Assembly: GCF_003931915.1 (NCBI RefSeq)
Contig: NZ_RSAA01000015.1
Coordinates: 248,001 to 312,000, forward strand
Length of the DNA stretch: 64,000 nt
Source of the DNA: Saccharopolyspora rhizosphaerae
GTDB taxonomy: Bacteria; Actinomycetota; Actinomycetes; Mycobacteriales; Pseudonocardiaceae
Direction of reading: 5' to 3'
The notes under the pieces were generated by a model, which saw nothing but the letters and a program-made list of their open reading frames with translations, did not search any database and was not told where the DNA came from. This document shows positions 17,022 through 19,518 of this stretch, in pieces (positions within the stretch are counted from its first letter, which is position 1; each line of letters opens with the position of its first letter). Both the position numbers and the translations under genes were made by a program.

Positions 17022-17252
17022 TCACGTCGTGCTCTTCTCCTCGGCCTTCTTGCCGCTCTTCTTCCCGTCCTTCTTGCCTTCCTTCTTCCCGCTCTTCTTG
17101 CCGTCCTTCTTCGCGGCTTTCTTCTTCGCCTTCTTGACCTCTTCCTCCTTGGATTCGCGGAGCAAGGTCTTCAGGACCACGATGGGGCAGCTCTTGCACG
17201 GTGGTTGCGAATGGCAACATTCCTTCTTGACCTTGATGGTGCCTTTGCCCAC
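17022..17252 (-). CDS. Small Cys- and Lys-rich protein with a five-fold GKK repeat, predicted iron-regulated
   Basis: The 76-residue product has two parts. Residues about 11-23 hold CCHSQPPCKSCP, four cysteines that could bind a metal. The second half is almost only Lys, Glu, Ala, Asp and Ser and contains five consecutive tetrapeptides of the form [D/S/E]GKK. I do not know its function. Actinobacterial proteins with a CC..xPxCKxCP core exist in my memory but are uncharacterised. GTG 17252 has GAGGA upstream. An iron-box-like site lies 36 bp before the start and overlaps a TACCCT -10 candidate, which suggests control by a DtxR/IdeR-type repressor. Confidence 0.8.
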   Translation of the reverse strand: MGKGTIKVKKECCHSQPPCKSCPIVVLKTLLRESKEEEVKKAKKKAAKKDGKKSGKKEGKKDGKKSGKKAEEKSTT

Positions 17253-17287
17253 GGTGCTTCTTCCTCAGACGGGTTCGGGGGTGCGGC

Positions 17288-17306
17288 CGAGGGTAGGCGA
17301 ACCTAA
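17288..17306. promoter_or_regulatory. Candidate DtxR/IdeR-type iron box
   Basis: CGAGGGTAGGCGAACCTAA matches 15 of 19 positions of the IdeR/DmdR box TTAGGTTAGGCTAACCTAA by direct comparison. It lies between the Cys/Lys-rich gene (start 17252) and typA (start 17605), much closer to the former. The minus-strand TACCCT (17295-17290) inside it could be a -10. Confidence 0.62.
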
Positions 17307-17604
17307 CCCGGTCTGGCGAACTTGATGTTCGCCCGCACCGGTGGATGTTGCACGGCCCACGTGCGCGCCGGTCGGTGATGTGCTTGCACTACGCTGGAGT
17401 CGGCCGCGTGTCGACGTAGCGCCCCCGCGGACCCGCGGGGTGACGCCGAAATGAGCTCCGCAGCAGCGGCGCAGTGGAGCCGCGGCCGGTGCCTGGCACT
17501 CAGCAGGCACCATGCGGGAGACCCGCATCCGGTGCCATCGCACAGCGGTGCATCACATCGACGAACCGCCGCGTCCTTTCCGCGCCGAGCCATGGAGTAC
17601 CCGC
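17307..17604. other. Leader and promoter region of typA
   Basis: No gene is supported here. CCCCGCGG-AC-CCGCGGGG at 17423-17440 is a compact perfect palindrome about 165 bp before the typA start. An upstream in-frame ATG at 17512 would extend typA by 31 residues not seen in the family. Confidence 0.45.
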
Positions 17605-19518
17605 GTGTCCGCCACCAGCGTCGCCGCCCCCACGCGCAGTGATCTGCGCAACGTAGCCATCGTCGCGCACGTCGACCACGGCAAGACCACCCTGGTCGAT
17701 GCGATGCTGCGCCAGTCCGGTGCCTTCTCCGAGCGCGCCGAGCTCGTCGACCGCGTGATGGACTCCAACGACCTGGAGCGTGAGAAGGGCATCACGATCC
17801 TGGCCAAGAACACGGCGATCCGCCGTGAGACCGAAGACGGTCCGGTCACCATCAACGTCGTCGACACCCCCGGCCACGCCGACTTCGGCGGCGAGGTCGA
17901 GCGAGCGCTGTCGATGGTCGACGGCGTGACCCTGCTGGTCGACGCCAGCGAGGGGCCGCTGCCGCAGACCCGCTTCGTGCTGCGCAAGGCGCTGGCGGCG
18001 AAGCTGCCCGTGATCCTGGTCGTCAACAAGGTCGACCGCCCCGACGCCCGCTGCGCCGAGGTCGTCGAAGAGGCCCACGACCTGCTGCTGGAGCTCGCCA
18101 GCGAGCTCGACGGCGAGGTCGACCTGGACATGGAGTCCATCCTCGACCTGCCGGTCGTCTACGCCTCCGCCCGCGCCGGCCGCGCCTCGTTGGAGCAGCC
18201 GGAGGAGGGCGAGCTGCCCGCCGAGGAGAACCTCGACCCGCTGTTCGAGGTGCTGCTCGAGCACGTGCCCGCGCCGGTCGCCGACTACGACTCGCCGCTG
18301 AGCGCCCTGGTCACCAACCTCGACGCCTCGTCCTTCCTCGGCCGCATCGGCTTGTGCCGGATCCACTCCGGCACGATCCGCAAGGGCCAGACCGTCGGCT
18401 GGTGCCGCGAGGACGGCAGCGTCGAGAAGGTCCGCCTGACCGAGCTGCTGATCACCGAGAACCTCACCCGCGTGCCGGCCGAGCAGGCCTCCGCGGGCGA
18501 CCTGGTCGCCATCGCCGGCGTCCCGGACATCACCATCGGCGACACCCTCACCGACCCGGACGACCCGAAGCCGCTGCCGCGGATCACGGTGGACGACCCG
18601 GCGATCTCGATGACCATCGGTGTCAACACCTCGCCGCTGACCGGCCGCAACGGCGGTTCCAAGATCACCGCCCGGCAGGTCAAGGCCCGGCTGGACAGCG
18701 AGCTGATCGGCAACGTCAGCATGAAGGTGCTGCCGACCGAGAAGCCCGACGCCTGGGAGGTGCAGGGCCGAGGTGAGCTGGCGTTGGCGATCCTGGTCGA
18801 GAACATGCGCCGCGAGGGCTTCGAGCTGACCGTCGGCAAGCCGCAGGTGGTCACCAAGACCATCGACGGCAAGCTGTGCGAGCCGTTCGAGCGGCTGACC
18901 ATCGACACCCCCGAGGAGCACCTCGGCGCCGTCACCCAGCTGCTGGCCAGCCGCAAGGGCCGCATGGAGACGATGGACGGGCACGGCACCGGTCGCATCA
19001 AGCTGGTGTATGTGATCCCCGCCCGCGGGCTGATCGGCTTCCGCACCGAGTTCCTCACCGAGACCCGCGGTACGGGCATCGCCAACCACGTCTTCGAGGG
19101 CTACTTCCCGTGGGTGGGCGAACTGCGCACCCGGCACAGCGGCTCCTTGGTCGCCGACCGTTCCGGTCCGGCCACCAACTACGCGCTGCTGCAGCTGGCC
19201 GACCGCGGTTCGTTCTTCGTGCAGCCGGGCAACGAGGTCTACGAGGGCATGGTCGTGGGCGAGAACCCGCGTGCCGAGGACCTCGACGTGAACATCACCA
19301 AGGAGAAGAAGCTCACCAACATGCGGTCCTCGACCGCCGATGAGCTCGAGAAGCTGGCCAAGCCGCGCACCCTCTCGCTGGAGGAGGCGCTGGAGTTCTG
19401 CTCCGGTGACGAGTGCGTCGAGATCGGACCGGAGGCCATCCGCGTCCGCAAGATCATCCTCGACAGCACCACCCGCGGTCGCGAGCGCTCGCGGCAGAAG
19501 GCCCGCGACAACGCCTGA
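17605..19518 (+). CDS. typA: Translational GTPase TypA/BipA
   Basis: TypA is a ribosome-binding GTPase related to EF-G that helps late ribosome assembly and growth under stress. The 637-residue product has G1 AHVDHGKTT near residue 16, G2 region REKGITI, G3 DTPGHADFGGEVER, G4 NKVD and G5 ASAR, then the C-terminal TypA-specific domain (GRIKLVYVIPARGLIGFRTEF) and Lys/Arg-rich tail. GTG 17605 is chosen because GGAG precedes it by 7 nt and because the family begins shortly before NVAIVAHVDHG. A strong hairpin ends the gene. In M. tuberculosis typA is also beside lpqW. Confidence 0.95.
   Translation: MSATSVAAPTRSDLRNVAIVAHVDHGKTTLVDAMLRQSGAFSERAELVDRVMDSNDLEREKGITILAKNTAIRRETEDGPVTINVVDTPGHADFGGEVERALSMVDGVTLLVDASEGPLPQTRFVLRKALAAKLPVILVVNKVDRPDARCAEVVEEAHDLLLELASELDGEVDLDMESILDLPVVYASARAGRASLEQPEEGELPAEENLDPLFEVLLEHVPAPVADYDSPLSALVTNLDASSFLGRIGLCRIHSGTIRKGQTVGWCREDGSVEKVRLTELLITENLTRVPAEQASAGDLVAIAGVPDITIGDTLTDPDDPKPLPRITVDDPAISMTIGVNTSPLTGRNGGSKITARQVKARLDSELIGNVSMKVLPTEKPDAWEVQGRGELALAILVENMRREGFELTVGKPQVVTKTIDGKLCEPFERLTIDTPEEHLGAVTQLLASRKGRMETMDGHGTGRIKLVYVIPARGLIGFRTEFLTETRGTGIANHVFEGYFPWVGELRTRHSGSLVADRSGPATNYALLQLADRGSFFVQPGNEVYEGMVVGENPRAEDLDVNITKEKKLTNMRSSTADELEKLAKPRTLSLEEALEFCSGDECVEIGPEAIRVRKIILDSTTRGRERSRQKARDNA

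What the first reader, a model, noticed from the sequence alone, without database searches (positions are those of the whole stretch)
17288..17306. Candidate iron box in front of a Cys/Lys-rich small protein
CGAGGGTAGGCGAACCTAA agrees with 15 of 19 positions of the DtxR/IdeR consensus TTAGGTTAGGCTAACCTAA (count made by hand). It overlaps a TACCCT -10 candidate and lies 36 bp before a gene for a 76-residue protein with CCHSQPPCKSCP and a polylysine tail. Iron control of such a protein would suggest a metal-handling, nucleic-acid-binding or iron-sparing role that I have not seen described.
Basis: partly seen in the sequence, partly recalled or inferred. Interest (0 to 1): 0.7.

Follow-up and report, generated by a model that had tools for sequence, protein, structure and literature searches.

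The report
Iron-controlled cysteine protein linked to ferritin
A Saccharopolyspora genome carries a gene for an unnamed 76-residue protein with four cysteines; a DNA site conserved in front of its relatives across many actinobacteria is predicted to let the iron sensor IdeR switch it off, and because some relatives sit right beside ferritin genes the protein would likely help cells use stored iron when iron runs short.

Summary
CGAGGGTAGGCGAACCTAA (17288-17306) matches the IdeR/DtxR consensus at 15 of 19 positions, 35 bp before a 76-residue Cys/Lys-rich protein (17022-17252, minus strand). It is one of 10 comparable sites in the 5.8-Mb genome (reversed-pattern control: 1). Seven of the other nine lie before iron-uptake or probable iron genes. 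By an independent matrix it is the weakest of its set.

A box of 13 of 19 or better precedes 25 of 25 first loci, 85 of 120 across the order and 20 of 47 in other orders (reversed control at most 12 in the last two). It keeps its distance to the small gene within genera and overlaps a -10-like element, so repression by Fe-IdeR is predicted. Genus g23 (Mycobacterium by inference) lacks it.

The family matches no Pfam, NCBIfam or PDB entry; four cysteines, CC-x5-C-x2-C, are invariant. In most Mycobacteriales loci it stands head-to-head with typA. Elsewhere a ferritin gene lies directly beside it in 30 genomes of six families (22 in one family). Best reading: an iron-starvation-induced, metal-binding ferritin partner, working like Bfd but unrelated in sequence. 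Iron control is well supported; the ferritin role is inferred (0.35-0.4). No binding or expression data exist.

The parts
17288..17306 (-). IdeR/DtxR iron box; on the gene strand TTAGGTTCGCCTACCCTCG
   Evidence: 15 of 19 to the consensus; one of 10 such sites in the genome; conserved before orthologues
17290..17295 (-). predicted -10 element TACCCT (TANNNT) inside the right half of the box
   Evidence: sequence; across the order TANNNT in or within 6 nt after the right half on the gene strand in 70 of 85 boxes against 22 of 85 mirrored
17257..17266 (-). purine-rich GAGGAAGAAG before the start codon, probable ribosome-binding site
   Evidence: sequence
17022..17252 (-). gene for the 76-residue Cys4/Lys-rich protein (GTG start, stop included)
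   Evidence: orthologues in 20 of 21 other genomes of the genus; third codon positions vary most (30 against 12 and 11 of 40 in 19 sequences)
17187..17219 (-). codons for CCHSQPPCKSC: the four invariant cysteines (C12, C13, C19, C22), predicted metal site
   Evidence: invariant in both family alignments; model confidence about 91 in this part
17025..17135 (-). Lys-rich C-terminal tail, variable in length between relatives
   Evidence: alignment; low model confidence over most of it
17512..19518 (+). typA/bipA translational GTPase, divergent neighbour (longest ORF; the TypA profile match starts at residue 45)
   Evidence: TIGR01394, 901.7 bits against a cut-off of 757.3; typA head-to-head in 106 of 120 order-level loci

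Best explanation
The window holds the gene of a small Lys-rich protein with four invariant cysteines, and the DNA before it carries a conserved iron box at which Fe(II)-IdeR is predicted to block transcription, so the protein would be made when iron is short and would likely bind a metal through its cysteines and act on ferritin to help release stored iron. Shown here by sequence: the box, its overlap with a TANNNT -10-like element, its conservation, the IdeR gene in the same genome, the invariant CC-x5-C-x2-C, and the ferritin gene directly beside relatives in 30 genomes of six families. Inferred: IdeR binding and repression (about 0.9); metal binding by Cys4 (about 0.8; Fe, Zn or Fe-S not decided); a Bfd-like role at ferritin (about 0.35-0.4). 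In Saccharopolyspora and its kin the gene is not beside ferritin but head-to-head with typA, keeping the iron box, so the action at ferritin would be in trans.
For: Box; seven of the nine other sites precede iron or probable iron genes. Conservation: 25 of 25 loci at 13 of 19 or better; 85 of 120 across the order, reversed control at most 12; 20 of 47 in other orders of the class, control at most 12; 4 of 9 loci outside the class, control at most 11. The box stays 67-70 nt from the Cys codons in six loci of the genus while the typA distance runs from 169 to 299. TANNNT bias 70 against 22 of 85, or 48 against 17 at the exact positions 12-17. IdeR: L206 aligns end to end with S. erythraea IdeR 7B1V (409 bits; the first 95 residues, with the DNA-binding part, are the same). 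Ferritin: matched stretches 24-123 bp apart in 23 of the 41 class-sample genomes that hold both, in 4 of 14 order-level loci without typA and in 3 of 7 loci of other classes. Of 20 such loci printed, 10 are divergent, 9 run small gene then ferritin, 1 ferritin then small gene; the box reaches 13 in 14 of the 20. Co-occurrence 41 of 78 against 36 of 316 genomes (not corrected for kinship). Ferritin identity: PF00210 in four of four tested. PF04324 in this genome falls only in two long open frames, so no stand-alone Bfd was seen.
Against: The window's own gene is not next to ferritin; the three PF00210 genes of this genome lie on other contigs. 37 of 78 family genomes have no close ferritin at E 1e-30, including all 16 of family f34. 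22 of the 23 class-level adjacencies are in one family (f41), so the number of independent events is small. Where the small gene precedes ferritin in one direction, a single upstream box would also switch ferritin off in high iron, odd for a storage protein. Genus g23 keeps the gene but has no box (0 of 19, best score 11). This site is the weakest of its set. Of the 10 genus genomes whose sites were listed before the cut, the box of this gene is within 3 mismatches in 5 and not in 5. The best-matching site of this genome (L030) lies between the ends of two convergent genes, so a good match alone does not prove a promoter site. No binding, expression or metal data exist.
Confidence: 0.4

Rival explanations
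1. An iron-starvation protein of the ribosome: IdeR releases the gene when iron is short, and the Zn-knuckle protein with its Lys tail binds rRNA or mRNA and works with the divergent translation GTPase TypA/BipA in an iron-sparing slow-down of translation.
For: Head-to-head with typA in 106 of 120 order-level loci, many lysines, Cys4 part followed by a helix in the model.
Against: typA is not found in the held flanks of any of 47 loci outside the order although 20 of them have the box. In genera g1 and g35 the typA distance drifts while the distance to the small gene is fixed; in g41 both are fixed. Ferritin, not typA, is the neighbour in the other lineages named.
Confidence: 0.25
2. A small metal chaperone or mini DNA-binding regulator: the Cys4 site holds Fe or Zn and the protein delivers the metal or tunes other iron genes, with no direct role at ferritin.
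For: In one relative the model is strand, Cys4 loop, helix, two strands, helix. Copper chaperones take ranks 1, 3, 5 and 8 of the weak Foldseek list (best E 0.96). A weak winged-helix TrmB match appears in 13 of 61 members (best E 0.0081).
Confidence: 0.2
3. The box belongs to typA, and the small gene is a bystander.
For: The box lies between the two divergent genes.
Against: The box is kept before the small gene in 20 of 47 loci where typA is not in the held flank. Within g1 and g35 its distance is fixed to the small gene, not to typA. The -10-like TANNNT is oriented toward the small gene.
Confidence: 0.05
4. A chance 15-of-19 match with no function.
For: It scores below the eight other sites of its set by an independent matrix.
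Against: A site of 13 or more at the orthologous place in 25 of 25, 85 of 120 and 20 of 47 loci, with controls at or below 12 of 19 in the last two.
Confidence: 0.03

Closest known systems
Bfd, bacterioferritin-associated ferredoxin (PF04324)
   Same: Small four-cysteine protein, gene beside an iron-store gene in some lineages, predicted to be made in low iron (Bfd facts: passages of PMC7762939; its control by low iron and its four cysteines recalled).
   Different: No Fer2_BFD match; CC-x5-C-x2-C instead of Bfd's spaced cysteines (recalled); the neighbour is a PF00210 ferritin, not shown to be a haem bacterioferritin; a Lys-rich tail; regulator IdeR rather than Fur (recalled).
IdeR/DtxR/DmdR1 regulon genes (siderophore, SIP, FecCD)
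   Same: Same 19-bp operator at the predicted promoter, and an IdeR gene in the genome.
   Different: The product is a basic Cys4 protein (76 residues here, 51-60 in most of the genus), not a transporter or siderophore enzyme. I did not meet it in the parts of the IdeR, DtxR and DmdR1 papers that I read.
Desulforedoxin and rubredoxin iron centres
   Same: A CC pair plus a CxxC pair could hold Fe(Cys)4 (recalled motif).
   Different: Order of the pairs reversed (recalled) and no Pfam match.
HMA/Atx1 metal chaperones
   Same: Metal loop before a helix in a strand-helix-strand-strand-helix model for one relative.
   Different: No significant structural or sequence match.

Membership tests
IdeR/DtxR regulon | 19-bp iron box near the promoter | tested here: met
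   15 of 19; one of 10 in the genome against 1 control
IdeR/DtxR regulon | box conserved before orthologues | tested here: met
   25 of 25, 85 of 120, 20 of 47 loci at 13 of 19 or better; controls at most 12 in the last two, none run in the first
IdeR/DtxR regulon | IdeR encoded in the genome | tested here: met
   L205 and L206 carry PF02742; L206 aligns with 7B1V at 409 bits
IdeR/DtxR regulon | IdeR binds and iron changes expression | not testable with these tools
   no bench data
Bfd | Fer2_BFD domain | tested here: not met
   no PF04324 match at E up to 1 for the window protein or 61 relatives
Bfd | gene beside a ferritin or bacterioferritin gene | tested here: met
   met in relatives (30 genomes), not in the window itself
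Bfd | [2Fe-2S] cluster and electron transfer to the store | not testable with these tools
   needs protein
HMA/Atx1 metal chaperone | HMA fold | tested here: inconclusive
TrmB-type winged helix | Pfam TrmB above its cut-off | tested here: not met
   13 of 61 members at E 1 or better, best E 0.0081; the one score printed (14.4 bits, E 0.034) is below the cut-off of 25.6, and E 0.0081 implies only slightly more

The most novel reading that the evidence does not exclude
A second, unrelated Bfd: an undescribed family of CC/CxxC mini-metalloproteins, repressed by Fe-IdeR, that dock on the PF00210 ferritins of actinobacteria and drive release of their iron in starvation.
Probability: 0.3. Interest if true: 0.85.

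Novelty: new variant of a known kind. Interest (0 to 1): 0.7.

Why it matters
How iron is drawn back out of ferritins that have no Bfd is, as far as I recall (not searched to the end), not settled. An iron-starvation protein encoded next to such a ferritin would give a direct handle on it. It would also add an overlooked, deeply conserved target to the IdeR regulon of antibiotic-producing actinomycetes, and a name to a family that Pfam and NCBIfam do not hold.

Tried and rejected
Protein look-ups in the large shared database could not be made, so homologues come only from the genome search and the search for related loci. PDB by sequence gave nothing for the family profile or for one g23 member. 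Foldseek gave nothing for the window model and no significant match for the relative. PADLOC: none for two proteins. FliH matches of the Lys tail in NCBIfam (18.8 bits against a cut-off of 180) look like low-complexity noise. The single-member, low-scoring NCBIfam matches of the relatives were not followed. The profile comparison A2 against A3 is not independent, since the two alignments share members, and is not used. The own ferritin upstream region holds partial boxes (12 of 19) no better than the reversed control (12), so nothing is claimed. Of the 10 genome sites one (L037) has no iron gene beside it and one (L030, the best match) lies at the ends of two convergent genes, MFS and superoxide dismutase, not before either. 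L299, a second weak match in G056, was left out of the counts outside the class. Supplementary tables of PMC8464063 could not be read, so the S. erythraea orthologue may already be among its 37 predicted sites. Literature searches on TypA with DtxR, BfrB mobilisation, ferritin with a small IdeR-linked protein, and the peptide motif listed no paper.

Full report
What was reported. Both are there. The count of 15 of 19 is right, the gap is 35 bp, and the TACCCT -10 candidate overlaps the box on the minus strand. The window is G000:C5:248001-312000 of a 5.82-Mb genome. Its genus is Saccharopolyspora by inference: contigs of same-genus genomes have the same lengths as named Saccharopolyspora contigs (for example 181595 bases, S. 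soli).

Does the site rank with siderophore genes? A search for TTAGGTTNGSCNAACCTAA with up to 3 mismatches gave 10 sites in the genome and 1 for the reversed pattern. The site in the window is one of the ten. Of the nine others, seven lie 10-154 bp before a gene that is or may be about iron: Peripla_BP_2 with a divergent siderophore-interacting protein, a second siderophore-interacting protein, a DUF2470 gene, two further Peripla_BP_2 genes, FecCD, and a pyridoxal-dependent decarboxylase. The eighth and best match (L030) lies between the ends of convergent MFS and superoxide dismutase genes, not before either. The ninth (L037) has no iron gene beside it. Over 22 genomes of the genus the same pattern gives 192 sites against 26 for the control (summed by hand from the table); in the 10 genomes whose sites were listed before the cut, the box of this gene is within 3 mismatches in 5 and not in 5. 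A matrix built from eight of the other sites (all but L037) puts the window's site first in the window at 16.7, but below each of the eight scored leave-one-out (18.8-31.8), with 15.0 the best of 20 shuffled windows. So the site belongs to the set but is the weakest of it.

Is the box conserved? Orthologues were found in 25 of 61 genomes (21 of 22 in the genus, the own genome counted, and 4 of other genera). All 25 upstream regions hold a site of 13 of 19 or better within about 220 nt (no control in that call). A family profile found 121 of 397 genomes of the order. In 120 of them I scored 276 nt before the cysteine codons: 85 of 120 reach 13 or more and the reversed consensus never exceeds 12 (12 in 4 of 120). 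Boxes occur in 31 of the 38 genera that have the gene. The 19 loci of genus g23, which the named loci suggest is Mycobacterium, have none (best 11). In the class sample 78 of 394 genomes hold the family. Of the 55 outside the order I examined 47: 20 reach 13 or more, 12 more reach 12, and the control reaches 12 once. Outside the class, 4 of 9 loci reach 13 or more, control at most 11.

Whose box is it? Within six loci of the genus the box sits 67-70 nt before the cysteine codons while the distance to typA runs from 169 to 299; in genus g35 it is 51 six times while typA moves from 82 to 145; in g41 both are fixed. The -10-like TANNNT falls in or within 6 nt after the right half on the gene strand in 70 of 85 boxes and in 22 of 85 on the mirrored strand; at the exact positions 12-17 it is 48 against 17. 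Outside the order typA is not in the held flank of any of 47 loci, yet 20 have the box. So the box belongs to the small gene, and its place over the -10 or just before it predicts repression by Fe-IdeR. This genome encodes two PF02742 proteins; L206 is an IdeR that aligns end to end with S. erythraea IdeR 7B1V and is the same over the first 95 residues. The S. erythraea paper (PMC8464063; abstract, section list, sections 6 and 16, part 1 of section 23 and search passages read) uses the 19-bp consensus, reports apparent KD values of 116 and 94 nM for two sites with three and two mismatches, and proposes the half site TTAGGNNNNCCTAA; the window's box has 9 of its 10 fixed bases, and 13 of 120 order-level upstream regions hold it exactly.

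What is the protein? It is a true coding gene by its codon pattern (variable sites 12, 11 and 30 of 40 by codon position in 19 sequences). No Pfam or NCBIfam family covers it and the PDB holds no relative found by sequence. Across 62 and 61 aligned relatives the four cysteines and the following proline are invariant. The model of the window's protein is confident around the cysteines and the first part of the helix after them. A relative from family f34 is modelled as strand, Cys4 loop, helix, two strands, helix at mean confidence 85, without a significant match.

The neighbour that points to a role. In several lineages where typA is not beside it, the gene lies directly beside a ferritin gene (PF00210, four of four tested). 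By coordinates, 23 of the 41 class-sample genomes that hold both have the matched stretches 24-123 bp apart: 22 are in family f41 and one in f48. Four of the 14 order-level loci without typA (families f2 and f16) and three of seven loci outside the class (f94 twice, f86) add to this: 30 genomes of six families; the f86 member (L297) is a weak family match. Of 20 such loci printed, 10 are divergent with the ferritin, 9 run small gene then ferritin, and 1 runs ferritin then small gene; the box reaches 13 or more in 14 of the 20. L297 is convergent with its ferritin. The family and this ferritin co-occur in 41 of 78 against 36 of 316 genomes (odds ratio 8.6; kinship not corrected; the two searches report the same number of genomes and share handles, so I took them as one sample). 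The other 37 family genomes lack a ferritin at that threshold, among them all 16 of f34.

Mechanism. Fe(II)-IdeR on the box would keep the gene off; in iron shortage it would be made; Cys4 would hold a metal; at ferritin it would help take iron out. The known parallel is Bfd, a small [2Fe-2S] protein with a gene next to bacterioferritin in many genomes but expressed differently, whose loss in P. aeruginosa traps iron in the store (passages of PMC7762939). The new family is not Bfd by sequence, so this is a likeness in working, not membership. In this genome PF04324 was found only inside two long open frames.

Limits. Regulation rests on sequence alone. The ferritin link is seen in six families, mostly in one, and is not present in the window's own genus, where the gene stands against typA, so a ribosomal role remains a serious rival. 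In the co-directional layout one box would repress ferritin too, which I cannot explain. Other papers: PMC12161575 (search passages and section 8), PMC1382209 and PMC12327846 (search passages only); in those parts I saw no mention of this family. Other papers were seen only as search listings. Searches are the basis for saying that I found no description in print.

Noticed in passing
17296-17302 and 17315-17321: GGCGAAC (GTTCGCC on the gene strand) is repeated 19 bp apart, once inside the box and once upstream; a similar upstream copy is seen in many of the Saccharopolyspora upstream regions printed. It could be a second operator.
   Followed up: no
L030, 1501-1519: The best iron box of the genome (CTAGGTTAGGCTAACCTAA) lies between the ends of convergent MFS and superoxide dismutase genes; an unannotated small gene or RNA could start there.
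   Followed up: partly
L033 and L277 (own genome, contig C17): A DUF2470 gene with an iron box (TTAGGCAAGCCTAACTTAA) lies about 4 kb from a ferritin gene of the same genome.
   Followed up: no
genus g23 loci, for example L112 and L132: Genus g23 keeps the small gene, mostly next to typA, but has no iron box in all 19 loci examined, so its control must have changed there.
   Followed up: partly
L246, L261, L238 and kin: In families f34, f48 and f54 some members have, instead of the Lys tail, a winged-helix-like helix and hairpin (VVLKRLADAGLLERESKRRYTF), with a weak TrmB match in 13 of 61 aligned members.
   Followed up: partly
L273, L276, L241 and kin: Small gene and ferritin run in one direction behind one iron box, which predicts a ferritin repressed by Fe-IdeR, contrary to the activation of ferritin genes by DtxR in C. 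glutamicum (PMC1382209 passages).
   Followed up: no
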